A DNA stretch of 64,000 nucleotides. Origin: Anseongella ginsenosidimutans (GTDB lineage Bacteria; Bacteroidota; Bacteroidia; Sphingobacteriales; Sphingobacteriaceae). The stretch lies in contig NZ_CP042432.1 of assembly GCF_008033235.1 (NCBI RefSeq), positions 744,001 to 808,000 on the forward strand. The letters run 5' to 3'. A program made the position numbers and the translations under genes. Under the pieces are notes generated by a model. It made no database searches and had not been told where the DNA came from. It saw nothing but the letters and a program-made list of their open reading frames with translations. Shown here piece after piece: positions 11,514 to 64,000 of this stretch (the first letter of the stretch is position 1; the number at the start of each line of letters is the position of its first letter).

Positions 11514-11613
11514 TGCAAAGCCGCTACCGTACCTTCCGATGCACAGGGAGACAAACCAGGACGGCCCTCCGTTCGTTTATTTTTCCTACATTGCTTAGAA
11601 GAATGCACCCGGA

Positions 11614-12213
11614 ATGTTTCTGAAAATAACAGGCGGCAGGAAGAAAACCCTCAGCGATGAAGAGCTGGCGGCGCATTACCGTAAAAACGGTGATATGATC
11701 CTGCTGGGCGAGCTTTACGGGCGGCACATGGAAATGGTGTTCGCGGTTTGCTTTAAATACCTGAAGGACGAAGAAGCCAGTAAGGACGCCGTGATGCAGC
11801 TTTTCGAAAAGCTCTCCGGCGACCTCCGGCGGCACGAAGTAAGCAATTTCAAAGGCTGGCTGCACCAGGTTACCCGCAACTACTGCCTCATGCATTTGCG
11901 TTCGGCCCAAAACAAGTTCCGCGAGAACATGGTTTCCATTGAAAATGAGTTAAGTGGGGATGTGGAAACGACTGCTTTCCTGCATCCTGATAATGGGGAA
12001 ATACTGGAAAACCAGTTGAGGAAAGTGGAAGCAGGGATCGGGCAGCTCCCCCCGGAACAGCAGCAGTGTGTCCGGCTGTTCTACCTTGATCAGAAATGCT
12101 ATAAGGATATTGCGGAAATGACGGGATACGAATTGAAGAAGGTGAAGAGTTATATACAGAACGGGAAGCGGAACCTGAAGTTATTTATGGAGGCGCAGAA
12201 AAATGAGCAGTGA
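11614..12213 (+). CDS. ECF-type RNA polymerase sigma factor
   Basis: A 199-residue sigma factor. Region 2 covers about residues 20-90, with FKGWLHQVTRNYCLMHLR as the promoter-melting part, and region 4 with the helix-turn-helix covers about 135-190 (LPPEQQQCVRLFYLDQKCYKDIAEMTG segment). There is no signal or membrane segment. Its last 11 bases overlap the start of the anti-sigma gene at 12203, so the pair is translationally coupled. This is the usual arrangement for an ECF sigma factor held at the membrane by its partner. What activates it and which promoters it reads cannot be seen here. Confidence 0.9.
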   Translation: MFLKITGGRKKTLSDEELAAHYRKNGDMILLGELYGRHMEMVFAVCFKYLKDEEASKDAVMQLFEKLSGDLRRHEVSNFKGWLHQVTRNYCLMHLRSAQNKFRENMVSIENELSGDVETTAFLHPDNGEILENQLRKVEAGIGQLPPEQQQCVRLFYLDQKCYKDIAEMTGYELKKVKSYIQNGKRNLKLFMEAQKNEQ

Positions 12214-39100: not shown

Positions 39101-39539
39101 CGGCGGGCATACCGGACGGCGACAGGGCGGTCCGAAGGATACTCAATTCGTTCCTGGCCCCTTTTACCGGGAGCAGCATTTTTCGCAACACCACAAAGTC
39201 CTTTTCCATTACCGCGTAGCTGATTTCCAGGGGGGCAAGGAGGCGGGAAAGGATAACTCCTGCCTTTACGCCTTCATAACTCATCGGCGGGGCCTGCACA
39301 TTATCGAAGAGATTGTTTACGTACACAAAGTGTACCCCGGTTTTTGTTTCAATAGCGCTAAGTACCTCTTCCATGGAAGTGCCTGGCAACTCGATAGAGA
39401 TCTTTTTATCCAGGACCTTCTGGGCATTCAGGCCGTGGGCGTGAAGGATGCACGCGCCGGTGAGCAGGAAAATAAGCTGGATAAATGTGAAGCGCATAAG
39501 GGCTATGAGCAACGTTGCTCCATAAGAATTACATTTCAT
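36103..39539 (-). pseudogene. SusC/RagA TonB-dependent transporter with STN domain, split by a frameshift
   Basis: Two abutting frames form one receptor of about 1145 residues. The upstream frame (39539 to 38616) has a signal peptide, an STN/secretin-N domain that receives the FecR signal, a carboxypeptidase-regulatory-like domain and the DEVVVVGYGTQKAATITG box. It then breaks after GSTFRIRG. The downstream frame (38613 to 36103) resumes exactly at the plug motif VVDGIANRGLERLNAADIES and ends with the barrel (FGVTLTF). The break maps to a run of five C at 38646-38650; six would restore RGANTLGDNSPLIVVDG. Everything else looks intact. The break is either a recent loss of function or a sequencing error. 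Confidence 0.9.
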
Positions 39540-42293: not shown

Positions 42294-44074
42294 TTATTCC
42301 CAGCCCGGGTTTTGACCCAGTTCGGGGTTGTCCTCCAGGTCGGCTTCCGGGATGGGGTAAAGATAATGTTTTTCATCCCATTCCCTCGGAAGGTTTTCCA
42401 GCCAGGTGATCTCTCCCCGGGTGCCTTGAGAGAGCTGCTGGGGATTGACGCCCCCGCTGATGGTAGGGGCTACGTTGATATAGGTCACACCAGGCGCAGG
42501 AGTGGAAGGCGGTGCCTGTACGAAGGAAACATCCATGTCGCCGTCCTCGTTCAGATCCATAGGCGTGTTCAGGGCCGGCACATAGAAGCCGTTCCATGGC
42601 AATTCCATCAACTCCCCTTTTTTCCAGCGTACCAGGTCATAAAAGCGGAAGCCCTCGAGGGCCAGTTCAATTGCCCGCTCCCTGCGAACCTCCAGCAGGA
42701 CCGGATCTGATATTTCAGGGAAATAATTCGCCTGCAGGTAGGGATCGGCAGTTACCGGAAGCGTATTCAGCCCGCCGGTAATGCCGGCCCGGCCCCGTAA
42801 AACGCCAATGGTCAGCTGCCAGTCCTCATTGTTCATCAGGCCCTGTTCTGCCCGCGCTTCGGCATAATTCAGCAGTACTTCGGCATATCGGATAATACTG
42901 ATGGAATTGTCGTTCCGCGTGCCGCCGTCATAATACGTGTCGTCCAGGGTCCATTTGATTGGCTGGTAGCCGGTATAGGTGTAGGAAAATACGGGGGAGC
43001 AGGCTCTTCCACCCCGCCGTTTATTCGTTTGTAATCGCCCATGCGAATGGTCTGGCTCAGGCGCAGGTCCCTGTTCTTCACCTCCTCGGGAAAGGTCATG
43101 GTCTCATGGCCGGGAACATTGGTAAAGGGAGTGCCGTCGCGGTTCAGGTAGGTATTGATAAAGGTCCGCGTAAAGCTCACCCTGGACCCGTAAGTGGAGC
43201 TGGTCCACCACCAATTGGCATCATTGAAAACGCTCAGGGAAGGATCGGCCACCGCAGACAGCATCACTTCGCTGGCAACAGGGGCCTTGCTGATGAACAC
43301 CTGGCGGTAAGAGCTTTCCGGCCCCACGCCTTCGTACAAGCTAAAACCGGAATTGTCCATGACAAATTTCGCCGCTTCTTCAGCTTCTTTCAGCCAGGTT
43401 CCGGCAGTAGACCCCAGGTCGTAGTTTGTATGGTATTTCCGGAAGGTCCCTTCGAAGAGGCAAACCCTTGATTTAAAGGCATAGGCGACGAAAGTGGTAA
43501 TGAGACTGCGGGTCTCGTCTTCCGTTGTGCGGATATTTTCGCAGGCATAATCCAGGTCTGCCAGGACGGAATCCATTACCAGCGTCCTGGGGTCGCGGCT
43601 GCTGAACAGGCCGGGATCATCCACACTCATGGCTTTGCTGATCCAGGGCACATCCCCGAATCGCTTTACTTTTTCGAAATAAAACCAGGCGCGGAAAAAC
43701 CGGGCCAGGCCAATGTAATGACGGCGTGTTTCCTCAGGGATGGCCGGATTGGTGCAGTTCTCAATGAAATAATTGAGGTTCCGAAGGCCTTCCCAATCCC
43801 AGCCCGAACTTTGCCGGGCGTCAAACGCACCAGGACGGATAAAATCCGGGACCTGGGTACGGGCCGCGTAATCGGCCAGTGCGTCCCCGCGGTGAATATC
43901 GTTTCCGCTGGGAAGAATATCATAGAAGGAAATGGAATATAGCTCCAGGCCGTTTTCGCTTCCGAATACGGCATCTTTTGTGGCAGTGTCTTCCGGCACC
44001 TGGTCCAGTTTCTCACAGGACACGAGGCATCCTGCCAGCAGGACAAGGTATAAAGGGTATCTTCTATTTTTCAT
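42294..44074 (-). pseudogene. SusD/RagB lipoprotein gene split by a frameshift
   Basis: The first frame (44074 to 42869, 401 residues) has a lipobox (LVLLAGCLVSC), the TPR-like helices (ARFFRAWFYFEKVKRFGDVPWI) and runs to GGVEEPAPP, then drifts out of frame. The second (42836 to 42294) resumes with the RagB C-terminal part (RERAIELALEGFRFYDLVRW). Reading the intervening bases in the second frame gives SYTYTGYQPIKWTLDDTYY and IIRYAEVLLNYAEARAEQG, the expected SusD sequence. The break is at a run of five G at 42993-42997; six would restore a protein of about 593 residues. It pairs with the intact SusC gene 11 bases upstream. Confidence 0.9.
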
Positions 44075-50540: not shown

Positions 50541-50711
50541 TGTAGCTATATCAGGACGGGTCAAGGGATCAGGCAAGCCATTATAGCCGTGCCTGAAAAG
50601 GCTATCGGTTCAAGCTTTGCCGATGAGCCACTTACGGAATTCGGCTACCAATACGACTGGCATGTGAAGCCTGCTCAGGCACGACTAAAGGTCAAACATC
50701 ACTTTATATGA
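50541..50711 (+). pseudogene. Fragment of a DEAD/type III restriction-like helicase gene
   Basis: An open stretch of 56 codons ends at TGA 50709-50711. It reads YIRTGQGIRQAIIAVPEK and then AIGSSFADEPLTEFGYQYDW, which resembles the start of a helicase just after the Walker A loop, where a TGSGKTRQAIIAVPE-type pattern is expected. No start codon or remaining domains are present, and the segment overlaps the 3' end of the glycosyltransferase pseudogene on the other strand. It appears to be a recombination remnant. The family match is from memory of the motif and is moderate. Confidence 0.4.
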
Positions 50712-51369
50712 CCCATACCTTTCATTGTAAACTCTTCTTAATTCCCTCCTCTTTTCCTGCCGTATTTCCTCATTATTTTTAGTCAAATAATTGACGTGTT
50801 TTACCTTAAAAAAATCACTAATAACAATTTTTCGTTGCAATAACTTTGCCTGATAGGCAATTTCCCAGTCATAGCCCATCCACTTTTTGACATAGGAAAT
50901 CCCCCGAAGCTCTCAATAAAATCAATATCCAAAGCACAGCAAAGAATGTCCGAATGCAGAACAGCTCTGTTCTTGTGTTCTCTATTACTCACCATCCACG
51001 GGTAATGACCTCCCTGATCAGAATTTTTAGTTATTGATGCACTCAATTGAACTATCTCGGGATGATTGTCAAGTATTATTTCAAAATATTTCATCTCAAT
51101 TCTAGTAATTGGCACTATATCATTGACTACCAGAAATAAGTATTGAGCACCCTGATCTCGCGCAATTTTCAGGGAATCGATAATTCCACCGCCTACTCCT
51201 GAGTTCTCTTCGTTCTGATGAGTAATAACAGTGCTTCTACTTTCATGGCTGGCGTTGTCCAAACATTTATATCATAGCCAGGATTCCACTTTTTGAATTT
51301 CCGATAAAGTAGGTCGGTTCTCCAGCCACCGCAATATTCTAACAAAACACAGCATATTTTCTTTCTCAT
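50685..51369 (-). pseudogene. Family 2-like glycosyltransferase, broken by two frameshifts
   Basis: Three reading frames on the minus strand join into one protein of about 226 residues. It starts at ATG 51369 (MRKKICCVLLEYCGGWRTD) and changes frame near 51264, where one more T would give NVLDNASHESRSTV. It then continues through HQNEENSGVGGGIIDSL and YLFLVVNDIVPIT (a DxD-like site). It changes frame again at about 50895, where one more C would give GGFPYVKKWMGYDW, and ends at 50685. The pattern is that of small GT2 sugar transferases. It is the last gene of the peptide cluster on this strand, 135 bases after the HlyD gene. Whether it is truly dead or misread needs resequencing. Confidence 0.7.
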
Positions 51370-51504: not shown

Positions 51505-52803
51505 TTAATTCCCTCGCTCCATCACCAGTCGGACGTTCCGCATCAGTCGTTGCAGCAGTGAAGCATCCTCAGTAATAATCTCCGCCGTGCCCACCATCCC
51601 CGTAGTAAGCCGGATAGCCCCTTCGTCTGGTTCCGACTGGATATCCACTCGAGAGAGGAACACGCTGTCGTGGTAAGGTACCCGGTTCAACTGCCCTACC
51701 TCTCCATGGAGTACCCCATATTCTTGAAACGGGTAGCTGTCAAGTTTGAGAAGCACCTCCTGTCCCACCTTCACCTTGCCCATGTTGTACTGCGGCACAT
51801 TCACCTCCCCAAAGAAATCCGAGCTGCCCGGGTTCACATAAAAGACCTCCTGCCCCGCTTCTACATGCTGATGTGGCTGGATGATGCCCGCATACACCAC
51901 CATGCCCCTCTGCGGTGCACTCAGCACGTGCTGTACCTTCCACTGTTGCATCTCACTAACCAAACTGTTCAATGCCTGCATGAACTTCGATTTTTCCTCC
52001 GCGATTTGATTGTCCAAGTCGGCTAGTTCTTTCACTTTGGCCGTGCGCGAGGCGTCATTGGCCAATAGCGACGTTTCCGTTTGCTCTAACGGGTGTTGTT
52101 TGGCCAATAGTACGGTCCGCTGCTTCTGATATTCCGATGGCGAGATCACTTCTTTTTCCGCCAGTACCTTATACCGTTCAAACTCCTGCTCAGCCAACGC
52201 GTATTCTCGTTGCTGCAAGTCTCTCTGCTGTTCCAGTTGTGCCCGTTGCAGCCCGATGTTCCGCAAATCCTCTAACAGGTACGCTCGCCGTTTTAGGTAG
52301 ATGCCGGTACCTACAGCCGATCGGTAGTTGAGATACGACTGGTAGAATGCCTGATAACTGCCTTGCAGCTCTCCCAACCGCAAGCTTGTAGGTGCTTCTA
52401 TCACCGCATGTGCAGCATCCATTTCCTGCAGCAAGCTATCGCGCAACCCATGGAGCAGGTCCAGCAAAGCCAGCACCTGCCGGTGATCCGCCGTACTCTC
52501 CATCCACCCCAGTGGCTGACCTTGGGATACCGTATCCTTTTCGGTAACCAAGATGTTCACCAAGTTGCCCGTCATCCTTGCAATGACCGCCTTGGGTGCA
52601 TTTGTCGCATTGATGCGTACCGGTGCCCGCACAAGGTCCGGGTACCGGATGAAAGCCGTCAGTGCCACAATGGCCACCAGCACTACAAACACCCACGTGA
52701 TGCCCCAGCGGACCAGCGAGCTGGGTGGGGTGCCGATGATATCGGCGATATCATCGCTATGTATTTCCGTGCTGGTTGGTTGGTTGGTGGTCTCCTTTTT
52801 CAT
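51505..52803 (-). CDS. HlyD-family periplasmic adaptor of a peptide exporter
   Basis: A 432-residue membrane fusion protein. One N-terminal membrane helix at about 33-52 (WGITWVFVVLVAIVALTAFI) is followed by a biotinyl-lipoyl half (RMTGNLVNILVTEKDTVSQG). A long alpha-helical hairpin fills about 120-290, and the second lipoyl half with beta-barrel follows (VLSAPQRGMVVYAGIIQPHQ). It should link the C39 ABC exporter encoded 22 bases upstream to an outer-membrane channel. No TolC-like gene lies in the window. Bacteroidota bacteriocin-type systems usually have exactly this adaptor next to the transporter. Confidence 0.9.
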   Translation of the reverse strand: MKKETTNQPTSTEIHSDDIADIIGTPPSSLVRWGITWVFVVLVAIVALTAFIRYPDLVRAPVRINATNAPKAVIARMTGNLVNILVTEKDTVSQGQPLGWMESTADHRQVLALLDLLHGLRDSLLQEMDAAHAVIEAPTSLRLGELQGSYQAFYQSYLNYRSAVGTGIYLKRRAYLLEDLRNIGLQRAQLEQQRDLQQREYALAEQEFERYKVLAEKEVISPSEYQKQRTVLLAKQHPLEQTETSLLANDASRTAKVKELADLDNQIAEEKSKFMQALNSLVSEMQQWKVQHVLSAPQRGMVVYAGIIQPHQHVEAGQEVFYVNPGSSDFFGEVNVPQYNMGKVKVGQEVLLKLDSYPFQEYGVLHGEVGQLNRVPYHDSVFLSRVDIQSEPDEGAIRLTTGMVGTAEIITEDASLLQRLMRNVRLVMERGN

Positions 52804-52825: not shown

Positions 52826-55009
52826 CTATTGTCCCAATTCCAACTGGTTTTTCACCAGTTTATAATACTCGCCCCGTTTTGCGACCAGTTCTTGATGGGT
52901 ACCCTGTTCCAACACTTTACCTTTGTCCAACACCACGATGTTGTCTGCATGGCTTACTGTACTGAGCCGGTGGGCCACGATCACCGCCGTACGGCCTTCC
53001 ATAAATTCCTTCAGGTTGTCGATGATTACCCGTTCATTATTCGCATCCAGTGCATTGGTCGCCTCGTCAAACAGAATGTAGCGAGGGTCTTTATACACCG
53101 CTCGTGCGATCAGTAACCGCTGTCGCTGCCCCTGACTAATGCCCTTACCGCCCGTTCCGATCTTCGTCTTCAGGCCAAAGGGTTGTTCTGTGATGAAGTC
53201 TTCCAGGTTAGCCATCCGGATCGCCTTTTCCACTTTTTCCCTGTCGGGGTATTCGTCCCCTACAGCAATGTTGTTCTCAATTGTATCGGCAAAAATAAAC
53301 CCATCCTGCATTACCGCCCCACAGCTTCCCCGCCAGGTCGCAAACCCAATCCGGCTCAGTTCGGTGCCTCCAACACGGACGATGCCCCCTTCCGGTTTAA
53401 AAAAACGCAGGATTAGTTTCAGTACGGTCGTTTTCCCACTACCGCTCATACCCACAATGGCAGTGGTTTTTCCCTCCGGTAATGACAGACTGATATCCCT
53501 CAGCACCGGCTCATTACCCGCGCCCGGATAACGGAAGGTGACCCCTTGTAATGTAAGGCCCTTGTTTGCCGGTAGTTCCCGCAGCCAGTCGTGGTCAGCC
53601 GGCTCCTCGTCCTCCTCCCTGTAAATCTCATTAATACGTTCGAGGCTAATCTTAGCATCCTGATACGACTGTATGAAGCCCAGCAGTTGCTGGATAGGGC
53701 TGTTCACCATCCCTACGATATACTGGATGGCCACCATACCACCCAGGGTTAAGTGGCCTTCAATCACAGCCTTGGCACTCAGAAAAGTGATCAGGATGTT
53801 CTTCAATTGGTTTATCGCCATAGAGCCCGCCTGCTGGTACTGACCCAGCGCCAGCGCCTTTACCTTAAAACGAAATAGCCGCGCTTGGATACCTTCCCAT
53901 ATCCACCGCTTCTGATGCTCGCTGTTGTTCAGCTTAATCTCCGGCATAGCAGTAATCATCTCCACGATGTTAGTCTGGTTGTCTGAGCCGATGGCAAACC
54001 GCTGGTGGTCGAGTTCCCTACGTCGTTTCAGAAACAGTAGAATCCACCCGGTGTACACTACGGTAGCCCCCATGAAAATAAGAAAGATACCGCCATGGTA
54101 GAACGCCAACACGAAACCAAACACGATCAGGTTCACGAAAGAGAACAGTGTACTTAAGGTGGACCCGGTAAGAAAGCTTTCTATGCGCTGCTGATCGGCC
54201 ATGCGCTGCATAATGTCACCCGTTGTCTTAGTCTCAAAGAACGCCATTGGCAGCTTCATCAGCTTGATGAGCATATCGGTAAGTACCGAAATGTTCACCC
54301 GCGTACTGATGTGCAGCGATATCCAGGAGCGAATAAAATTTACGCCCGTTTGTCCTAAGAACAACGCCAGCTGGGCAATGAGGATGAGGTGAATAAAATT
54401 CAGGTTGCGCGTACTGATGCCAATATCTACCACCGATTGGGTGAGGAACGGCGTGATTAGCTGAAGAATAGTGCCTATCAGCAGACCCAGTACCAGCTGC
54501 ATGAATAGTTTACGGTAGGTATAAAAGTAACGCAGCACAGTGCCCCAGCGCAGGCCCTTTTCTTTTCCCTCCTCTTCGGTTTCGTAGAACTGCGGGGTTG
54601 GGGCCAACAAGAGGGAGATACCGCTATGGAGTTCCTTATGTGCAAACCAGTTGTCCGCGAATTCCTTTTCGCTTAGTTTGCGTTTCCCTGACGCCGGGTC
54701 AGCGATATGAAACACCCCTCTTTTGATCCTATACAGAACCACAAAGTGATTTTGTCTCCAGTGCAGGATGCAGGGCAACGTGATCTCGGGAAGCTGCTCC
54801 AGTGCCAGCTTCACCCCCTGAGTGCGGAAGCCTAGCTTATCGGCGGCCTCGCTGATGCCCAGTAGGTTCACCCCACCGCGGGTCACCTGGCATAATTGTC
54901 GCAGCAGGTAGATGTCCCTGTTGCGGCCGTAGTGCTTGCACACCATCCGCAGGCAGGTGGCTCCGCAGTCCATCTGGTCCTGTTGGCGATAGTGGGGGAA
55001 GGGTGTCAA
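52826..55009 (-). CDS. Peptidase C39-containing ABC exporter (double-glycine leader peptidase/transporter)
   Basis: A 727-residue inner-membrane protein. Residues 1-130 are a peptidase C39 domain with the catalytic C15 (MDCGATC), H88 (NHFVVL) and D104 (ADPASG), plus Q9 for the oxyanion hole, so cleavage should be active. Six membrane helices follow at about 165-440. The ATPase domain has Walker A GMSGSGKTT, a degenerate signature ISQGQRQR, Walker B YILFDEATNALD and the switch His in AHRLS. Such proteins cut leaders after Gly-Gly and export the core. The precursor at 59529 with a VVGG leader is its obvious cargo. It is upstream of the HlyD gene. Confidence 0.95.
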   Translation of the reverse strand: MTPFPHYRQQDQMDCGATCLRMVCKHYGRNRDIYLLRQLCQVTRGGVNLLGISEAADKLGFRTQGVKLALEQLPEITLPCILHWRQNHFVVLYRIKRGVFHIADPASGKRKLSEKEFADNWFAHKELHSGISLLLAPTPQFYETEEEGKEKGLRWGTVLRYFYTYRKLFMQLVLGLLIGTILQLITPFLTQSVVDIGISTRNLNFIHLILIAQLALFLGQTGVNFIRSWISLHISTRVNISVLTDMLIKLMKLPMAFFETKTTGDIMQRMADQQRIESFLTGSTLSTLFSFVNLIVFGFVLAFYHGGIFLIFMGATVVYTGWILLFLKRRRELDHQRFAIGSDNQTNIVEMITAMPEIKLNNSEHQKRWIWEGIQARLFRFKVKALALGQYQQAGSMAINQLKNILITFLSAKAVIEGHLTLGGMVAIQYIVGMVNSPIQQLLGFIQSYQDAKISLERINEIYREEDEEPADHDWLRELPANKGLTLQGVTFRYPGAGNEPVLRDISLSLPEGKTTAIVGMSGSGKTTVLKLILRFFKPEGGIVRVGGTELSRIGFATWRGSCGAVMQDGFIFADTIENNIAVGDEYPDREKVEKAIRMANLEDFITEQPFGLKTKIGTGGKGISQGQRQRLLIARAVYKDPRYILFDEATNALDANNERVIIDNLKEFMEGRTAVIVAHRLSTVSHADNIVVLDKGKVLEQGTHQELVAKRGEYYKLVKNQLELGQ

Positions 55010-55449: not shown

Positions 55450-56052
55450 TTATTCATTCTCCAGCGTAAACGGGGCCTCGGTTTTATTCGATATCTCGTT
55501 GCCAAATGGTACCTCATGTTCATTAAGGAACCTATTCAGTTCGCCGATAGGTACGATGTAATCCACCTGGTCGGGGTGATAATAGTCCACTTGCCTACGG
55601 AAGTGTTCATCCTGGTGCAACAGGTACTCCTTACCCAACTCGAATTCCGGGAACTGAATGAAGCGGCCGAAGTCTATGTTTTCGTATAATCCCAATGTAT
55701 AGAAATATTTTCGGAACTTCCGCTCAAGGCAGGATAGTCTATATGTAGAAATCACACGACCCACTGGATCACGCCACACCGTGAACTTCGTGAACTCCCC
55801 TTGTTCACGTTCATATGAGTCCATCTCTTCAAACGGGATGAGATATGGTGACTCTTGCGAATAACCGATCTTATCATGGATAGCCCAGAAACCCTCAACC
55901 CATTCTTGCTCCTGAGATTCATTGTAGACGACTACTTTTTTCAGGAATGTCCCCGCGTTCTTGGAGATGACTACAAACGTTAAATCGGCGTTTGGAATTA
56001 GGCAGAAACAGTTCCCAGAAAATGGAAATACTTTTTCATTAGGGACTTTCAT
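55450..56052 (-). CDS. Sulfotransferase-family protein, truncated near its C-terminus
   Basis: A 200-residue cytosolic protein. The N-terminal TFVVISKNAGTFLKK corresponds to the PAPS 5'-phosphosulfate loop of sulfotransferase family 2, with Asn in place of the usual Thr or Ser-Gly. FTVWRDPVGRVISTYRL is the 3'-phosphate-binding segment. After the TAA at 55450 the same frame continues with HIKRIHESYQGDYEIKRNYPS to 55387, which is the usual end of such enzymes, so the stop looks premature and removes about 21 residues. It may sulfate the exported peptide or its glycan. It follows the second GT25 gene by 22 bases. Confidence 0.75.
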   Translation of the reverse strand: MKVPNEKVFPFSGNCFCLIPNADLTFVVISKNAGTFLKKVVVYNESQEQEWVEGFWAIHDKIGYSQESPYLIPFEEMDSYEREQGEFTKFTVWRDPVGRVISTYRLSCLERKFRKYFYTLGLYENIDFGRFIQFPEFELGKEYLLHQDEHFRRQVDYYHPDQVDYIVPIGELNRFLNEHEVPFGNEISNKTEAPFTLENE

Positions 56053-56074: not shown

Positions 56075-56752
56075 CTATTGTATGTTTCCTGTTCCGTATC
56101 TATCCGCGATGGCCAGAATCTTGGTTAGCCGCTCTTCACTCCGGCAGAACAGATCCTTGTGTTTGGTCATTTTCAATCCCTGCACCGGAAGGTCCGAATA
56201 CCCGAAATCTTTTTGGGCAGAAATGAATGGGTGGATAATCATCTTATGGCTGGTCATCTCCGAGAACTTGACGTCGGCGACTTCACCTTCAGTGAATGGC
56301 TCGTCCAATATCCGCTGAAAAAAAATGCGGTAGGCCACAATAAATTGCGTAGATTGAAATTGGTCGATCCAAAACCGCCCTTCAGCAACCGGGATAGCTT
56401 GCCCGAAGTGGTTGATCCCGCCCAGCATTATATTAGCACCCTGCTCCGCGGCACCAATGATTTGACGAAACAAGCTTGTTCTTGAATAATGTGGCGTGAA
56501 CTCATGGTCGTCTTTGCAAATGACAATCACATCGTCATTGCGTTCCATGGCTGTCCGGATTACTTTTTTAATACTTTCCCAAAGGTTAATCACGCCTATC
56601 TCATGCCGATGGGCTTCGATAAACTCGACGTCAAACTCCTCCCTACCTTCGAATTGTCCCCGGATGTGGGTAATCCGATCTTTATGCTCCGGCAGGTTGA
56701 TTACATACACGGGTACGCAAACGTCGCTGTAAGATTGTGTTTTTTTGCCCAT
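56075..56752 (-). CDS. Glycosyltransferase family 25-like enzyme (second of a tandem pair)
   Basis: From the ATG at 56752 a 225-residue cytosolic protein. YVINLPEHKDRITHIRGQF near the N-terminus and VICKDDHEF at about 95 match the GT25 (LPS/procollagen glycosyltransferase) fold, where the acidic DD pair binds the metal and nucleotide sugar. The last third (FGYSDLPVQGLK) contains the AQKDFGYSD box shared with its neighbour. The frame extends upstream to 56821, but that part is the shadow of the previous gene, whose restored stop is at 56757-56759, four bases away. In a RiPP cluster it may put sugars on Ser or Thr of the precursor. Confidence 0.78.
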   Translation of the reverse strand: MGKKTQSYSDVCVPVYVINLPEHKDRITHIRGQFEGREEFDVEFIEAHRHEIGVINLWESIKKVIRTAMERNDDVIVICKDDHEFTPHYSRTSLFRQIIGAAEQGANIMLGGINHFGQAIPVAEGRFWIDQFQSTQFIVAYRIFFQRILDEPFTEGEVADVKFSEMTSHKMIIHPFISAQKDFGYSDLPVQGLKMTKHKDLFCRSEERLTKILAIADRYGTGNIQ

Positions 56753-56756
56753 AACT

Positions 56757-57409
56757 TTATTTCGTATTAAATCCATAAAACTTGCGTACCGAATCCAGTT
56801 GAGCAAGTTTCTCGCTCCCATTGTCGAACAATTCCGTCACCCACCCCTTTTTTTCATTCTTTTTCGTTACATCCGAATAACCAAACTCCTTCTGTACCGA
56901 AATGTACGGGTACATCACAAAAATCCCGTCCGTGAGGGAAGAAATCTTCCGGTCTGCCCCCCCTTCCCTAAATCCGCTTCCAATATTTTTTCATAAAATT
57001 TCCGGTATATCAGCATGAATTGCGTACCAGTGAATCGATCCACCCAAAATAAGTTCTTGTCAACCTGTAGTACTTGGTCGAACCAGCTCACTCCTCCCAA
57101 CAATATATCGGCATCGTATTTTCTGGATTGATTTATGGCTCTGATCAGTCTATTGGACGTATAGGCTTCTGTGAAAACATGATCGTCTTCGCAGATAAGA
57201 ATATTATCGATATCATCATTGCAGACTTTCTGTATGATTTGGCATATAGTTTGCCACAAGCCAATAGCTCCTACCTTATGAGCAATAGCTGGAACGACGG
57301 TCAATTGAAATTCGTTCCTTCCCTTAAATTCTGAAATCAAGCTCGCTTTACGATCTGTTCGCCTCGCTAGATTGATGGCATAAGTATTTATTTTACCCAT
57401 GCAAGTCAC
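56757..57409 (-). pseudogene. Glycosyltransferase family 25-like enzyme (first of the pair), frameshifted
   Basis: The intact frame (57409 to about 56960) has YAINLARRTDRKASLISEF and LICEDDHVF, as in GT25. It breaks at a run of seven C on the plus strand (56957-56963). In the next frame the protein continues with DRKISSLTDGIFVMYPYISV, QKEFGYSDVTKKN and a stop at 56757. That restored tail parallels the neighbouring paralogue's FGYSD box and ends four bases before its start codon, so the restored gene is very convincing (about 217 residues). Eight C would fix it. As read, the last third is lost and the enzyme is probably inactive. Confidence 0.82.
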
Positions 57410-57593: not shown

Positions 57594-58739
57594 TTACAAA
57601 TAATTACCTATCTTTTCCTTTATACGTTCGAGCAGTATCGATTGCTCCATGATGCGATTATCTCTGGTACGGACTATGAAATAGCGCGGGACTCCCCCTA
57701 CATCGATGTCCTTAAACCGATGAGCGTACTGCGACCAATCTATCCAGAAATTAGGATATGCCGAACCGTGGAGTTCCATATAGTTATTCCAGGATTCCTC
57801 CCCACACATTATAGCAAGGCCGACGATTGAGAATTTTTTGTTTGTGCCATGTTGCTGCGCCAGCTCCCGGAGTTTTGGATGATCCCGAATGCAAGGACCG
57901 CACCAGGTAGCCCACAACTCTATCAGCAGATAATCGCAGCTGTTTCGCAGCTGTTCATAATTCATCCCGATACCGGCCATTAAAAGCTGCGCATCGCCAA
58001 GAGCGGGAAAAATACCAGGGCGCGGAATATTGTTGAAATAAAAAGTTTCGTACCCCGCCAGCAAATCTTTAATTTTTTCCTCTCCAAGTACCGCTGGATC
58101 GAGTCCCGAAATAACCCTCAACACATCATCTTTCACCGGGAGTGCCGACTCTCGAAAGAATGTGAAAATCTTTTGAAAGGCATAAACCGAACCGGGATGT
58201 TTAGCTATCAACATGAGCTCTTCTCCGTATTTTTTCAGCTGGATCGAATCCAGATCGTCTTTGAAATTGAGCAACTCGTTTTTAAATCGGGTGTTAATCT
58301 CGTCGAATGCGGATTTCACATGGTTTTCGTACCCGCCATTTACAAGCATAGCCCCTGTTTCCAGATCGATATCAATATTGATGGCTGTGGTATCTAAAAG
58401 AACGTTAATATACTTCACCGATGGGGGAATATCTGTTTTAAGGCGAGGAGCAATTTCGCCGGGATCATTGAAACAATAAAGACGAACCGAACTTAATGCA
58501 TTACCTCCACCGGGTGGCAGTGCCGTATAGCATTTGAATGAAAAGCCGCCATCGGCATCAATTTTGGCTTTATGCAAGCTGTTCTCACCGTTTAATACAT
58601 AATAAACAGCTTCTGGAATTACCTCAGCCGATACCTGCCCGGAAATCGTAACCTGACTTTGCCAGACAACAGGGGAACTGCCAGCCCAACTATAAAAACC
58701 AGCTACCCCTAGAAGACTTGCTAACACTGCACTTTTCAT
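57594..58739 (-). CDS. TlpA-like periplasmic thiol-disulfide oxidoreductase
   Basis: A 381-residue exported protein with a signal peptide (MKSAVLASLLGVAGFYSWAG). The first half is a DUF4369-like beta-sandwich and helical region. The C-terminal 140 residues are a thioredoxin fold with active site C280-G-P-C283 (ELWATWCGPC) and cis-Pro in VGGVPRYF. TlpA/ResA-type proteins reduce or isomerise disulfides in the periplasm. Next to a VKOR-thioredoxin and a four-cysteine precursor, it probably helps set the correct disulfides. It lies 15 bases after the DUF4369 gene. Confidence 0.88.
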   Translation of the reverse strand: MKSAVLASLLGVAGFYSWAGSSPVVWQSQVTISGQVSAEVIPEAVYYVLNGENSLHKAKIDADGGFSFKCYTALPPGGGNALSSVRLYCFNDPGEIAPRLKTDIPPSVKYINVLLDTTAINIDIDLETGAMLVNGGYENHVKSAFDEINTRFKNELLNFKDDLDSIQLKKYGEELMLIAKHPGSVYAFQKIFTFFRESALPVKDDVLRVISGLDPAVLGEEKIKDLLAGYETFYFNNIPRPGIFPALGDAQLLMAGIGMNYEQLRNSCDYLLIELWATWCGPCIRDHPKLRELAQQHGTNKKFSIVGLAIMCGEESWNNYMELHGSAYPNFWIDWSQYAHRFKDIDVGGVPRYFIVRTRDNRIMEQSILLERIKEKIGNYL

Positions 58740-58754
58740 ATCTGAAATAGAATT

Positions 58755-59447
58755 TCACTCTTTGGTTCTTTGCAATTTATTGTAGAATCTTTCCCCAATG
58801 GTGCTTTCCTTGACCTCCTTTGGAAGCTGATCATAGAAATCGATGTATTTCGCATAAGAGAAGAACGGATCAGAAACCAAAATCCATGTTTTCTCGGCTA
58901 TCTTGTTGGGTGTCGTTATAACCTCATCAAATAGCGCCCTGATTGCCTGGTTTATCGCGTCGACGTCCTGACTTTCGATATCCATTGATCCTTCTGTTTC
59001 CGGCAAACTCCCAAGTTCTTTCTTCATGCCTTCCAATTGAAGTAATTTCCCGTGTATAAACGAATCCCAATTATGATATTCCGAATCTGTAATAATCTTG
59101 GGATCATACGTATACAAACCTTTCTCCCGAACCTTCAAAGCAAATTTGCATATATACCGGCTATTGTCCAGATGCACCGCTACGCCGCCATACTGATAGG
59201 TGACAGTTGCTTGATATGGAAACGGAACAGTACCTTCGAACCTGAATTTTCCGTTAGCAATGGTAGTGGTATCCACTCTCTCCTTACCATAGAATTTTAA
59301 AAATACCTTGTCCCCATCCCTAAGCGGACCTTTTACGGTGGTGTCTGCAGCATTATCAATAATCCCTTCAATAACATAGTGACATTCCTGTGCAGCCGCG
59401 GTGGTTACCAATGCTGTTAGTGTGCAAAGAATTAAAAAGTTTCTCAT
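58755..59447 (-). CDS. Exported DUF4369-like protein
   Basis: A 230-residue exported protein (signal peptide ending near TTAAAQ). The mature N-terminal part is a DUF4369-like beta-sandwich (YVIEGIIDNAADTTVKGPL, GKFRFEGTVPFPYQATVTY), as found at the front of many Bacteroidota thioredoxin-like proteins. The C-terminal half is helical. There is no thioredoxin active site; it looks like the front half of the neighbouring TlpA-like protein on its own. It lies between the precursor gene (81 bases upstream) and the TlpA-like gene, so it is probably an accessory or immunity-type envelope factor. That last point is only a guess. Confidence 0.75.
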   Translation of the reverse strand: MRNFLILCTLTALVTTAAAQECHYVIEGIIDNAADTTVKGPLRDGDKVFLKFYGKERVDTTTIANGKFRFEGTVPFPYQATVTYQYGGVAVHLDNSRYICKFALKVREKGLYTYDPKIITDSEYHNWDSFIHGKLLQLEGMKKELGSLPETEGSMDIESQDVDAINQAIRALFDEVITTPNKIAEKTWILVSDPFFSYAKYIDFYDQLPKEVKESTIGERFYNKLQRTKE

Positions 59448-59528: not shown

Positions 59529-59795
59529 TCAGCTTCCAGACCCCCAAGTGGCGGTCCAGTCTGTTGCCGTACCTCCGGAGCTGTTAATATCATCGTAAGC
59601 ACTTTCACATCGTGTGCTGCAGTCGGATTCTGTAGTTGGCTCGGGATTTAGTTCAATCGGATAATCGTTGCCATCACTTGCAGTTAAACGACACTCACAA
59701 GAAGTATCACTCCCGTTACCACCAACAACTTGCTTTAACTGTTCCCTTGTCAAAATTTCTTCTACATCTTTCAAATTTAATTTGAGCTTATTCAT
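59529..59795 (-). CDS. Double-glycine leader precursor peptide (putative RiPP/bacteriocin)
   Basis: An 88-residue peptide. Residues 1-26 form a leader (MNKLKLNLKDVEEIL, then TREQLKQVVGG) of the Bacteroidota natural-product-precursor type, ending in GG where a C39 peptidase cuts. The predicted 62-residue core starts at N27. It has four Cys (C33, C35, C59, C63 in CEC and CSTRC), 19 Ser/Thr, 12 Asp/Glu against two Arg, two Tyr (Y45, Y67) and a Trp/Gly/Ser-rich end. It is flanked by the VKOR-thioredoxin and DUF4369 genes. The cysteines suggest disulfides or other crosslinks, and the Ser/Thr content suits glycosylation. The core resembles no characterised peptide that I recognise. Confidence 0.85.
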   Translation of the reverse strand: MNKLKLNLKDVEEILTREQLKQVVGGNGSDTSCECRLTASDGNDYPIELNPEPTTESDCSTRCESAYDDINSSGGTATDWTATWGSGS

Positions 59796-59900: not shown

Positions 59901-59932
59901 CGGCAGTCCCCTCGGACTGCCGTGGCTTTTTT
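59901..59932 (+). terminator. Stem-loop with T-run between the VKOR and precursor genes
   Basis: A 9-bp perfect stem CGGCAGTCC / GGACTGCCG followed by TGGCTTTTTT. The T-run is on the plus strand, opposite to the cluster's direction, so it may be a structural barrier for the minus-strand transcript or terminate antisense reading. Confidence 0.5.
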
Positions 59933-60003: not shown

Positions 60004-61644
60004 TCAACTTTTCAGGAAATAGTTCAAATCCTCAACCGAATACATTTCCGGTAGCTGGTGGCCGTCCACAAAAAAAGTGGGGGTGAACCGGATATCCATC
60101 TGCTCGCACCATTTCCGCATGGCTTCTATTTTGTGTCCCTGTTGCTGCAGCTCGCTGTTCATCGGGTAGTTGGCCGCAAACGTGAAGTAGTCCTTTTTTT
60201 TCGCTAGGTACCAATCGTCCAATGCCTGTTTCAACTGCTGCTTGTCGCCCTGGCTCGATATGGCCAGCAGATGGCGAACGGGCGCGGCTCTCTTGTCTTT
60301 ATCATCGCAGGTAGCGGTGAAAATAATCTGTACCTGCACCTCAGAATTGCTGTCCAAGATTTTCTCGATGACCGGATGCGCTTTGGCGCAGGGGCTGCAA
60401 TAGGGGTTGCACACCTTGATGATTCGATGTTTGGCGCGTGGATTACCCAGCGAGATGCCCAGCCCCTCACTGCCCACGGCTGCTTTTTGTTTGTCAAGAA
60501 GCGCTGAGAATATCTGCGAATTGTGCTTCAGGCGTTGCAGCTGATGTCTCAGGGTCATTCCTTTTTTGGCCTGCTGTAATGTCGGTACAGCCAACGTGAC
60601 GCCGATAAATGGAAGGATAGATGAAGTACACAAAGCAAGTGCCTCGTAATCGGGAAATCCATCAGCAGGCGTGAATGCCCAACCGGCCGTAAGAATAACT
60701 GCCGCTTGGAGTACGAGTATGCACTGTACCACCAGGCAAAGCGTACACCATTGTTTGGCTACCCGCCATTGGTAATACAATGAGAACACTGTGTAGCCGA
60801 CGGCTGGTAAACCCAGCCAGGAAAGTAGCTGCAAAAGGGATAGATTACCCAGCCCCGAAATAAGCAGTACGATCACGATGCCGGCGAAGTAAGCGAATCC
60901 AATGTGTGACCAGCTGAGGCCGAGCAACCTGGCAGCGCTAGAGCCGAGAACGGCCCCGCAGTTGACATTTTTTATGTCGGAGCAGGCCTGCTTCAGTGCA
61001 GGATTGTGCCGGTCTACCTCGTGCCACAAAAGTAGCAGCCCTACGAAAGATCCAATGGCGGCCAGCAACAGGTATATTCCAGGGAAAACAGCATCCACCC
61101 CATATCTAAACAATCCTAGAGCAATGGCGGCTAGTACCAAAATTGGAACAATAGCCATTATAACTGTTCGAAGAATGGACGCACTATGTACAGCTTTTTG
61201 CTTCTTCTGGTAGTCCATTTCGCCGGCATTCTCTTTCACCTCGGCAATAAATACTACGTTACCAGCCATACTCGCAAATTCATCGATTGTACAAGTAATC
61301 CATTTATTTCTTACGGGGTGCAGATACGATATCCCTCGTGTACTATCCAGTCGGACCACTGTAAAGTCTAAGGGAGAAGAACCCTTATCTAGTTTGATTT
61401 GCGTAATATATGGTTGCTCCAATCCAGCCAATTGACCCTTGCTTATCCGTACGGCGGTGGTTCCGACACCGAACGATCCGAATGCATCGCTCAGGGCCAA
61501 CATGCTCGGATAATCCGGGTGCCCTTCCAGTGTTTCTCGCAGCGACTCACGAGTGACCTTTAAGCCTAACAACCGTGCATAATACCAGGCAACATGATTG
61601 ACGTTGGACGTAGGGTATAATAGTCTGTCGATAAATGGAATCAT
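60004..61644 (-). CDS. C39-like / VKOR / thioredoxin fusion, disulfide-forming membrane protein
   Basis: A 546-residue inner-membrane protein. Residues 1-140 resemble a peptidase C39-like fold (VNHVAWYYARLLGLKVTRES, then HPDYPSMLALSDAFGSFGV) but lack the catalytic cysteine, so this part is presumably a binding domain. Next comes a vitamin K epoxide reductase domain with five helices at about 160-365, including the loop pair C221/C229 (CSDIKNVNC) and the active CxxC at C300-T-L-C303. The C-terminal thioredoxin/DsbA-like domain has C416-S-P-C419. VKOR and thioredoxin together oxidise cysteines in exported proteins with quinone as acceptor. It opens the cluster and precedes the precursor gene. 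Confidence 0.92.
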   Translation of the reverse strand: MIPFIDRLLYPTSNVNHVAWYYARLLGLKVTRESLRETLEGHPDYPSMLALSDAFGSFGVGTTAVRISKGQLAGLEQPYITQIKLDKGSSPLDFTVVRLDSTRGISYLHPVRNKWITCTIDEFASMAGNVVFIAEVKENAGEMDYQKKQKAVHSASILRTVIMAIVPILVLAAIALGLFRYGVDAVFPGIYLLLAAIGSFVGLLLLWHEVDRHNPALKQACSDIKNVNCGAVLGSSAARLLGLSWSHIGFAYFAGIVIVLLISGLGNLSLLQLLSWLGLPAVGYTVFSLYYQWRVAKQWCTLCLVVQCILVLQAAVILTAGWAFTPADGFPDYEALALCTSSILPFIGVTLAVPTLQQAKKGMTLRHQLQRLKHNSQIFSALLDKQKAAVGSEGLGISLGNPRAKHRIIKVCNPYCSPCAKAHPVIEKILDSNSEVQVQIIFTATCDDKDKRAAPVRHLLAISSQGDKQQLKQALDDWYLAKKKDYFTFAANYPMNSELQQQGHKIEAMRKWCEQMDIRFTPTFFVDGHQLPEMYSVEDLNYFLKS

Positions 61645-62346: not shown

Positions 62347-62566
62347 ATCGGAAGATGGGTAAAGTCACCATCGGGATTGATAAATGCCTCCTTGTCCGGC
62401 TTGTATGCCTCCTATGCGATTCCTGTTCGTCAGGCCAGCGCTTTGCCTTCGGCTTCCTTCAGATTCCACCTCGCGATGGACACCCTTGCCGCTCGGCTAA
62501 CAGTTCCCCTTACCGGGCCTGTAGAGGACTTCATCTCCGGGAGGGTTGCACCTTCGCGGGCGGGGA
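62346..62566 (-). mobile_element. 5' domain of a second group II intron, joined to the intron 3' end
   Basis: Reading on the minus strand from 62566: a GAAGTCCTCTACAGGCCCGG segment, then GTTAGCCGAGCGGCAAGGGT, then GGTGGAATCTGAAGGAAGCC and TGGCCTGACGAACAGGAA. This is the domain I pattern of Bacteroidota group II introns, with its first few bases replaced. It begins exactly where the neighbouring intron ends and is cut off by the IS21-like repeats at 62346. Confidence 0.6.
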
Positions 62567-64000
62567 TTGAGTAGGAGGCGAAATTGTTAGATTTCGCCGT
62601 CCTCTCACACCACCGGACGTACGGTTCCGTATCCGGCGGTTCCAGTGCCTACTGTTTTCTTGTAAATCAAATATCTGTCCAGCAGGCTTTCTAAGCCAAG
62701 GTGTCGGAAATACTTCTTAGGAAAGGCTTGATTCATGTGGCTGGCCCCGGAATTCCACCATGGGCCGCGGTCGTTGAACGAAGACTGAACAGCTCGCTCC
62801 TCCGACAGCCCTGCGGCCATCAGACGCAGGCGTCTTGTCCACCTTCGTTTCCATTGCCGCCACTTGATCAGTCGTAACCGCCTGCGGATCCATTCATCCA
62901 GCTCCTCCGCAATCCCTTTCATGTCCGCTATACGGTAATAATTCAGCCAGCCCCTGAGATGAGGGTTGAGCTGTTCAGTGATAAACCTTCCTATGTTTCT
63001 CCCTCTACCTTGCCTGAATAGCCTCTTGAGTTCCTGCCGGAGACGTCTCAGGCTCTCGGGGGATACCCGGATCCCCACCCCGCCTTTCTTCCAGTAGAAG
63101 CTGAAGCCCAGGAATTTTCGTTTTCCCAGACGATCTGCCTTGCTCTTTTCCTTGTTCACTTTCAGCCGCATCTTCCCTTCCAAAAAGCGTGTTAATGAGG
63201 CATATACCCGTTCCCCGGATTGCCTGGTTTTCACGTACACGTTGCAGTCATCAGCATATCGGACAAACTTATGGCCCCGCTTCTCCAACTCTTTGTCCAG
63301 TTCGTCTAATACGATATTGGACAACAGCGGCGATAGCGGTGACCCTTGAGGAGTGCCTTTACTGCGTGGTTCCAGCACCCCGCCCTCCATTATACCTGCT
63401 TTCAGGCAACGGTCTATCAGGCGGTGCAGCTGCCATTCTCCCCGGGTCTTTTCCATAATCCGGCTCATCAGTCTTCGGTGGTTGACCTCGTCAAAAAAGT
63501 TTGACAAGTCCATATCCACTACGTATTTGTAGCCCTGCTCCTGATAAGTCTTTGCTTGTTCAACTGCGGATGATGCCCTGCGCCCTGCACGGAAACCGTA
63601 GCTCTGATCTGAGAACGTGGGTTCCCAGATCGGACTCAATACTTGCTGGATAGCTTGTTGGATCAGCCGGTCGGTGACCGTGGGGATACCCAGCATTCGC
63701 TGGCCTCCTCCCGGCTTCGGTATGGTTACCTTCTTTACCGGCTGGGGGCAGTAGATGCCCCCTTCCAACTCTTCTTTGATTCGTTGCCAGTGTGTTTGGA
63801 GATACGGCCGCAGCTGGCTGACTTCCATCCCGTCTATCCCCGCCGAGCCTTTGTTGCCCACTACCTTTCGGTAGGCAAGCTCCATGTTCTCCTTACTAAC
63901 AATTTCCTCTATCAGATACTTCTTTACTGGGGTCGGATTTTCTACCGCGGGTATAGAAGTATCCGCACCAGGTGCTTTCCCGACCACTTCCGGTAGTCGT
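62566..64000 (-). mobile_element. Group II intron, 3' part with reverse transcriptase
   Basis: The intron runs off the right edge of the window on its 5' side. On the minus strand the RT frame is followed by a domain V-like hairpin at 62603-62643 (AACCGCCGG ... TACGTCCGGTGGTGTGAGAG). Domain VI follows at 62571-62600, a GGCGAAAT / ATTTCGCC stem with a bulged A region. The intron ends CCTACTCAAT at 62566, fitting the AY end rule. Confidence 0.8.
62605..63987 (-). CDS. ltrA: Group II intron reverse transcriptase/maturase
   Basis: A 460-residue frame. RT blocks run in order: GIDGMEVSQLRPYL, PKPGGGQRMLGIPTVTDRL, YGFRAGRRASSAVEQA, VVDMDLSNFFDEVNH, GTPQGSPLSPLLSNIVLDEL and the catalytic FVRYADD (D246, D247). 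The maturase X domain (GIIM, NPHLRGWLNYYRIADMKG) lies at about 345-380 and a short end NDRGPWWNSGASHMNQAFPK is typical. No HNH endonuclease is visible. The frame opens at a GTG at 63987 and stays open to the window edge, so the true start may lie beyond. Its end overlaps the intron's domain V. Confidence 0.92.
   Translation of the reverse strand: MVGKAPGADTSIPAVENPTPVKKYLIEEIVSKENMELAYRKVVGNKGSAGIDGMEVSQLRPYLQTHWQRIKEELEGGIYCPQPVKKVTIPKPGGGQRMLGIPTVTDRLIQQAIQQVLSPIWEPTFSDQSYGFRAGRRASSAVEQAKTYQEQGYKYVVDMDLSNFFDEVNHRRLMSRIMEKTRGEWQLHRLIDRCLKAGIMEGGVLEPRSKGTPQGSPLSPLLSNIVLDELDKELEKRGHKFVRYADDCNVYVKTRQSGERVYASLTRFLEGKMRLKVNKEKSKADRLGKRKFLGFSFYWKKGGVGIRVSPESLRRLRQELKRLFRQGRGRNIGRFITEQLNPHLRGWLNYYRIADMKGIAEELDEWIRRRLRLIKWRQWKRRWTRRLRLMAAGLSEERAVQSSFNDRGPWWNSGASHMNQAFPKKYFRHLGLESLLDRYLIYKKTVGTGTAGYGTVRPVV

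What the first reader, a model, noticed from the sequence alone, without database searches (positions are those of the whole stretch)
59529..59795. New precursor peptide: VVGG leader with four-cysteine acidic core
The leader ends at G26, fitting the C39 peptidase encoded 4.5 kb downstream. The core has CEC and CSTRC, i.e. two close cysteine pairs 24 residues apart, 19 of 62 residues are Ser/Thr, net charge is strongly negative, and the tail is DWTATWGSGS. This is neither a cationic bacteriocin nor a lanthipeptide-like core.
Basis: partly seen in the sequence, partly recalled or inferred. Interest (0 to 1): 0.72.

Follow-up and report, generated by a model that had tools for sequence, protein, structure and literature searches.

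The report
Double-glycine peptide with glycosyltransferase-pair gene cluster
A Bacteroidota genome encodes a small secreted, probably disulfide-bonded peptide whose export genes travel with a pair of sugar-attaching enzymes; across relatives, the presence of these enzymes predicts a Gly-Ser stretch at the start of the mature peptide, pointing to an undescribed kind of sugar-decorated bacterial peptide.

Summary
In detail: window 59529-59795 (-) encodes an 88-aa protein, a 26-aa leader ending VVGG and a 62-aa acidic core with CEC and CSTRC. The leader-core reading is well supported. The leader is conserved in dozens of family genomes (K3, G25, G26 invariant in 24 leaders), while cores are unrelated; 97 of 100 cores have an even, non-zero number of Cys. 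The gene sits in a conserved same-strand cluster: VKOR-DsbA fusion, precursor, DUF4369/TlpA proteins, tandem GT25-like glycosyltransferases, here a sulfotransferase, C39-ABC exporter, HlyD. Precursors near a GT25 pair carry 'GS' in the first 12 core residues in 37/45 cases, against 11/55 without (Fisher 4e-10; within-genus permutation 4e-5). Loci with a different large enzyme have Thr-rich linkers instead. Best explanation: a C39-exported, disulfide-bonded peptide whose N-terminal Gly-Ser linker is O-glycosylated by the GT25 pair, the glycan being sulfated in this strain. Glycosylation, sulfation, cleavage and bioactivity are inferred, not shown. It works like a glycocin or bacteroidetocin but is neither by the tested features. 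Novelty: new variant of a known kind. The window's GTa gene is frameshifted at a G-run.

The parts
59529..59795 (-). precursor peptide gene, 88 aa
   Evidence: leader homologues
59718..59795 (-). leader, 26 codons, ends VVGG
   Evidence: A1 alignment: M1, K3, G25, G26 invariant in 24
59532..59717 (-). core, 62 codons, 4 Cys, acidic, 19 Ser/Thr
59700..59717 (-). N-terminal linker NGSDTS with the GS motif; proposed glycosylation site
   Evidence: association test
60004..61644 (-). membrane fusion: degenerate C39-like domain (no catalytic Cys) + VKOR + DsbA-like thioredoxin; proposed disulfide-forming enzyme, possibly leader-binding
   Evidence: Pfam VKOR 3.5e-16, Thioredoxin_4 1.6e-12; six Cys conserved in 48/48; hhalign to the C39 domain 96.7%
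58755..59447 (-). DUF4369 protein, probably secreted
   Evidence: E 8.4e-9
57594..58739 (-). TlpA/thioredoxin_8-like protein with WCGPC
   Evidence: E 5.5e-8
56757..57409 (-). GTa, GT25-like glycosyltransferase; frame changes at a G-run (ORFs 56915-57409 and 56757-56918)
   Evidence: (PF01755 3.1e-5)
56075..56821 (-). GTb, GT25-like glycosyltransferase, intact, CKDDHEFT motif
   Evidence: homologues in 33 of 251 genomes; fold
55450..56052 (-). Sulfotransfer_2 protein with PAPS-site-like motifs (SKNAGTFLKK, RDPVGRVISTY)
   Evidence: Pfam PF03567 5.1e-9; homologue only in G098
52826..55009 (-). C39 peptidase-ABC exporter (PCAT), catalytic Q/C/H/D residues present
   Evidence: Pfam C39 5.6e-37
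51505..52803 (-). HlyD-type periplasmic adaptor
   Evidence: HlyD_3 5.6e-14
50685..51369 (-). three ORF fragments, by eye one frame-broken GT2-like gene downstream of HlyD; membership uncertain
   Evidence: no Pfam hit for the largest fragment

Best explanation
The ORF is the precursor of a small secreted peptide. The leader targets it to the C39-ABC/HlyD exporter, which cuts after Gly26 (inferred). The VKOR-DsbA fusion, perhaps with the TlpA-like protein, forms two disulfides in the core (inferred). Before export, the tandem GT25-like glycosyltransferases attach sugar to Ser of the Gly-Ser linker that follows the GG (inferred from the enzyme-linker association). In this strain a sulfotransferase then sulfates the glycan (inferred, weaker). 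The mature product would be an acidic, disulfide-bonded, O-glycosylated peptide, most likely used against, or to signal to, related bacteria (speculative). Shown: conserved leader, conserved gene cluster, even Cys numbers, GT25 fold assignment, and the GT25-GS association.
For: Conserved leader with unrelated cores. Of 42 loci with a GT25 gene or pair, 26 have C39-ABC, 26 the VKOR fusion and 27 a precursor on the same strand within 7 kb; median distance to C39-ABC is 408 bases. GS in the first 12 core residues: 37/45 with GT25 vs 11/55 without, p=4e-10; GSG or SGS 31/45 vs 3/55, p=9e-12; per genome 25/29 vs 7/29. Within-genus permutation p=4e-5 on 63 loci. Same-genome contrasts: G298, G131 and G208 each have a GT25 locus with GSG and another locus with neither. 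Linker composition: Ser 25%, Thr 5% at GT25 loci; Thr 24%, Ser 11% at loci with the other large enzyme. Two loci with decayed GT25 remnants (G184, G084) also have truncated cores. GTb model resembles COLGALT1 (E 8e-7), a GT25 enzyme that acts on polypeptide, mimivirus R655 and bacterial beta-1,4-GalT. In 20 loci the two GT domains are fused in one open frame. 97/100 cores have an even non-zero Cys number. The other sulfotransferase cluster (G098) has a core without Tyr, which favours glycan over Tyr as the sulfation target.
Against: No direct evidence of glycosylation, sulfation, cleavage or activity. The GTb model is modest (mean pLDDT 66, 5 sequences), and Foldseek TM-scores are 0.4-0.5. GTa is frame-broken here. 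Eight of 45 precursors near GT25 lack GS, notably in genus g14 (0/4), and G149 has GS linkers but no GT25. The GS motif was first noticed in part of the GT25 loci, so the test is only partly out of sample (most control loci and L129, L154 and L155 were fetched later). Gly-Ser could be a mere flexible linker.
Confidence: 0.6

Rival explanations
1. An unmodified disulfide-bonded class II (bacteroidetocin-like) peptide; the GT25 and sulfotransferase genes serve surface polysaccharide and merely lie nearby, and Gly-Ser is a flexible spacer.
For: Bacteroidetocins have a GG leader, four Cys, a thiol oxidoreductase and a C39-ABC exporter without any GT (PMC6671954). Several loci here lack GT25 altogether.
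Against: The GT25 pair lies between precursor/VKOR and exporter on one strand in many genomes, is practically absent elsewhere in the class and phylum samples, and predicts linker sequence.
Confidence: 0.22
2. A Tyr-sulfated signal peptide like RaxX, the sulfotransferase acting on DY in 'NDYPIEL' or 'SAYDDI'.
For: GG leader, C39 exporter and a sulfotransferase occur together; both Tyr have Asp neighbours.
Against: The Pfam family is Sulfotransfer_2, carbohydrate-type by general knowledge; the only relative with the same sulfotransferase encodes a core with no Tyr; that cluster is rich in GTs.
Confidence: 0.08
3. A non-functional remnant: GTa and a GT2-like gene are frame-broken, and the peptide may no longer be matured as in relatives.
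For: Frame breaks at 56.95 kb and 50.7-51.4 kb.
Against: Other large genes in the window also look split (36.1-39.5 kb, 42.3-44.1 kb), so indel errors in the assembly are likely; exporter, HlyD, VKOR fusion, GTb, sulfotransferase and precursor are all open.
Confidence: 0.1

Closest known systems
Bacteroidetocins (class II bacteriocins of Bacteroidales; PMC6671954)
   Same: GG leader, four Cys, thiol oxidoreductase and C39-ABC exporter in one region
   Different: Leader 15-16 aa versus 26 here; 42-48 aa mature peptides, one with net charge +2; no GT or sulfotransferase reported; no core similarity
Glycocins (sublancin, glycocin F, enterocin F4-9; PMC12457901, PMC8620827)
   Same: Precursor, glycosyltransferase, thiol-disulfide oxidoreductases and C39 exporter in one cluster; disulfide-bonded core with Ser/Thr
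   Different: GT25-like tandem pair instead of a SunS-type GT; Gram-negative host with HlyD; proposed sugar site in an N-terminal GS linker; different Cys pattern
RaxX/RaxST/RaxB (sulfated peptide; general knowledge, cited in PMC10885120)
   Same: GG leader, C39 exporter, sulfotransferase, DY in the core
   Different: Sulfotransfer_2 protein, glycosyltransferases present, disulfide core; the ST-carrying relative lacks core Tyr
TIGR04149 GG-leader natural product precursors (Bacteroidota)
   Same: Leader style MKKLxLxxxxLTREQLKxVxGG
   Different: Window peptide scores 16.8, below the cutoff of 25; no radical SAM gene among the ORFs tested
COLGALT1 (GT25 collagen galactosyltransferase, 9evj)
   Same: Best structural match of GTb; GT25 enzyme acting on polypeptide
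   Different: Eukaryotic, 13% identity, TM-score 0.47 on the query; acceptor is hydroxylysine, not Ser

Membership tests
Double-glycine-leader peptide exported by a C39 PCAT | Leader ending in GG, conserved apart from the core | tested here: met
Double-glycine-leader peptide exported by a C39 PCAT | C39-ABC with catalytic residues in the same cluster | tested here: met
Double-glycine-leader peptide exported by a C39 PCAT | Cleavage after GG | not testable with these tools
   needs enzyme assay or mass spectrometry
Bacteroidetocins | 15-16 aa leader and conserved placement of four Cys in a 42-48 aa peptide | tested here: not met
   26-aa leader, 62-aa core, spacing CxC...CxxxC
Glycocins | SunS-type family 2 peptide GT in the cluster | tested here: not met
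   Pfam shows GT25-like proteins; no Glycos_transf_2 hit in the window ORFs tested
Glycocins | Two nested disulfides in a helix-loop-helix with CX6C pairs (general knowledge) | tested here: not met
   Cys at core 7, 9, 33, 37
Glycocins | Sugar on Ser, Thr or Cys | not testable with these tools
   only the indirect GS-GT25 association
TIGR04149 rSAM-modified RiPP | Score above the curated cutoff | tested here: not met
   16.8 vs 25 bits
TIGR04149 rSAM-modified RiPP | Radical SAM enzyme in the cluster | tested here: not met
   none among the ten ORFs of 50.8-61.6 kb
Sulfated peptides of the RaxX kind | Tyr in the core conserved among sulfotransferase-carrying clusters | tested here: not met
   G098 core has no Tyr; only two clusters compared
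GT25 glycosyltransferases (GTa/GTb) | Match to PF01755 and GT25 fold | tested here: met
   PF01755 in 3 of 5 members, best 2.5e-6; GTa itself 3.1e-5, GTb alone only 0.015; Foldseek COLGALT1 and bacterial beta-1,4-GalT

The most novel reading that the evidence does not exclude
A previously undescribed class of RiPP, found chiefly in this Bacteroidota family: disulfide-bonded peptides with an O-glycosylated Gly-Ser linker next to the cleavage site, built by a tandem GT25 pair and, in some strains, extended by further GTs and sulfated, i.e. a bacterial miniature of a proteoglycan-like modification. A sister class with Thr-rich linkers would use an unnamed ~500-aa enzyme and a LanC-looking partner.
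Probability: 0.45. Interest if true: 0.78.

Novelty: new variant of a known kind. Interest (0 to 1): 0.6.

Why it matters
Known glycosylated RiPPs (glycocins) depend on a small set of SunS-type GTs, nearly all in Gram-positives. A Gram-negative family with its own peptide glycosyltransferase type, natural variation in many cores and a simple sequence rule (GS linker follows GT25) would give a testable enzyme-substrate code and new tools for attaching sugars to peptides. It also gives a likely function to a set of orphan GT25 pairs that would otherwise be filed as LPS biosynthesis.

Tried and rejected
Close homologues of the whole precursor: none confirmed in genome contigs and none in the own genome beyond itself; only leaders match. 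Lanthipeptide or radical-SAM system: no matching enzymes among the ORFs tested. Tyr sulfation: disfavoured by the G098 core. GT25 genes as a generic LPS locus: rejected by synteny. PDB sequence search with the sulfotransferase found nothing meaningful, and with the GT alignment only weak GT hits (R655, E 0.08). The GT2-like fragments at 50.7-51.4 kb matched nothing in the fetched loci. NCBIfam gave no name to the GT25 proteins, the ~500-aa enzyme or its LanC-looking partner. Literature searches found no report of this cluster, but the library holds open-licence papers only.

Full report
What is there. Window 59529-59795 on the minus strand is an open frame of 88 codons: MNKLKLNLKDVEEILTREQLKQVVGG followed by a 62-residue core with Cys at core positions 7, 9, 33 and 37, 19 Ser/Thr and net charge about -10. 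The window lies in a 4.32-Mb single-contig genome, Bacteroidota by its gene content and relatives.

Is it a precursor? The whole peptide has no close homologue, but the leader does. A protein search found matches, mostly to the leader, in 12 of 151 family genomes including its own, and a profile of 24 leaders found them in 58 of 301. M1, K3, G25 and G26 are invariant in the 24. Cores after the GG are unrelated to each other, but of 100 distinct precursors collected, 97 have an even, non-zero number of Cys, mostly six. This is the signature of a leader-core family with disulfide-bonded, fast-changing cores.

Surroundings. All neighbours from 61.6 to 51.5 kb read on the minus strand: a fusion of a degenerate C39-like domain, VKOR and a DsbA-like thioredoxin domain (60004-61644); the precursor; a DUF4369 protein; a TlpA-like protein; two GT25-like glycosyltransferases; a Sulfotransfer_2 protein; a C39-ABC exporter with catalytic residues; and HlyD. 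Profile-profile comparison ties the N-terminus of the fusion to the C39 domain of the exporter (96.7% probability), but it lacks the catalytic Cys; it may bind leaders (inference). Six redox Cys of the fusion are kept in 48 of 48 homologues.

Conserved cluster. The GT25-like protein 56075-56821 has relatives in 33 of 251 genomes sampled from the order (own genome included), nearly always as a tandem pair. Twenty loci have both domains in one open frame. Of 42 such loci, 26 have C39-ABC, 26 the VKOR fusion, 22 HlyD and 27 a precursor on the same strand within 7 kb (layout). Outside the family the pair is rare: one other genome of 346 sampled from the phylum and none outside the family in 295 sampled from the class, plus one Niabella MAG.

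The key association. Most cores near a GT25 pair begin with Gly-Ser, often GSGSG, right after the GG. I noticed this in the first set of GT25 loci and then fetched precursor loci chosen by leader alone. 'GS' in the first 12 core residues: 37/45 with GT25, 11/55 without (p=4e-10); GSG or SGS: 31/45 vs 3/55 (p=9e-12); by genome 25/29 vs 7/29. A permutation within genera on 63 loci, leaving out fragmentary cases, gives p=4e-5. In genomes with both kinds of locus (G298, G131, G208) only the GT25 locus has the GSG start. Genus g14 is an exception (0/4), and G149 has GS without GT25. Two genomes with decayed GT25 remnants also have truncated cores.

A second enzyme type behaves in parallel. Many loci without GT25 carry a ~500-570-aa protein starting M-IYISAQPD with a LanC-looking partner, unnamed in Pfam and NCBIfam. 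Their linkers are rich in Thr (24% Thr, 11% Ser) where GT25 linkers are rich in Ser (25% Ser, 5% Thr); Mann-Whitney p=6e-7 for Thr and 4e-5 for Ser (related loci counted separately, so these p-values are optimistic). Enzyme type thus predicts which hydroxyl residue fills the segment between GG and the first Cys. I take this as the best evidence that this segment is the substrate site.

Enzyme identity. Three of five GT alignment members hit PF01755. An AlphaFold2 model of GTb from five sequences has mean pLDDT 66; its best PDB matches are COLGALT1, mimivirus R655 and bacterial beta-1,4-galactosyltransferases, i.e. the GT25 fold. The C-[E/K]-D-D-H-x-F-T motif is widely kept. In the window GTa changes frame at a G-run near 56.95 kb. 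Other large genes in the window look split too, so an assembly error is as likely as a real loss.

Sulfation. The sulfotransferase has one clear relative in 201 family genomes, in G098, whose cluster also holds a fused GT25 pair, a further GT25-like and two GT2 genes, and a precursor whose core has no Tyr. Glycan sulfation is therefore favoured over Tyr sulfation in the RaxX style.

Mechanism and status. Most likely: glycosylation in the cytoplasm on the leader-bearing peptide, export and leader removal by C39-ABC with HlyD, disulfide formation by VKOR-DsbA. Conserved leader, cluster and association are shown; the chemistry, order of steps and biological role are inferred.

Comparison. By gene content it works like a glycocin (precursor, GT, thiol oxidoreductases, C39 exporter; PMC12457901) and like a bacteroidetocin (GG leader, 4 Cys, oxidoreductase, exporter; PMC6671954). 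It fails tested features of both: GT type and Cys pattern for glycocins, leader length and Cys layout for bacteroidetocins. Searches of the open-licence literature found no description of this GT25 cluster; that is absence in one library, not proof of novelty. I rate it a new variant of a known kind.

Noticed in passing
L125:10220-12728, also L127, L131, L133, L134, L136, L138, L139, L144, L145, L149, L152: Sister clusters without GT25 carry a ~500-570-aa 'MIYISAQPD' protein with HDSD motif plus a 260-340-aa LanC-looking partner; no Pfam or NCBIfam name; their precursors have Thr-rich linkers.
   Followed up: partly
L087:9342-18741: G098 cluster with sulfotransferase, fused GT25 pair, a third GT25-like ORF and two GT2 genes: looks like an expanded glycan-building version.
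   Followed up: partly
L052, L056, L058 and four further GT25 loci: Branch/GT14-type glycosyltransferase (PF02485 1.1e-30 for L058) occurs in 7 GT25 loci and in none of the others.
   Followed up: partly
L071:10725-10973 and 11573-11806: Two precursors next to a GT25 pair end the leader in MGKGSIGA instead of GG, recalling the Gly-Lys cleavage reported for thermoglycocin relatives (PMC12457901).
   Followed up: no
window 36103-39539 and 42294-44074: SusC-like and SusD-like genes look split into two frames each, suggesting indel errors in this assembly.
   Followed up: no
window 62379-63987: Group II intron (Rfam group-II-D1D4-3 at 62379-62480) with its reverse transcriptase gene, just upstream of the cluster.
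   Followed up: partly
window 59901-59922: Perfect 9-bp inverted repeat (CGGCAGTCC/GGACTGCCG) between the VKOR gene and the precursor; a T-run follows only on the + strand.
   Followed up: no
L129 and L154: Decayed GT25 fragments next to precursors with truncated cores: whole clusters seem to decay together.
   Followed up: partly
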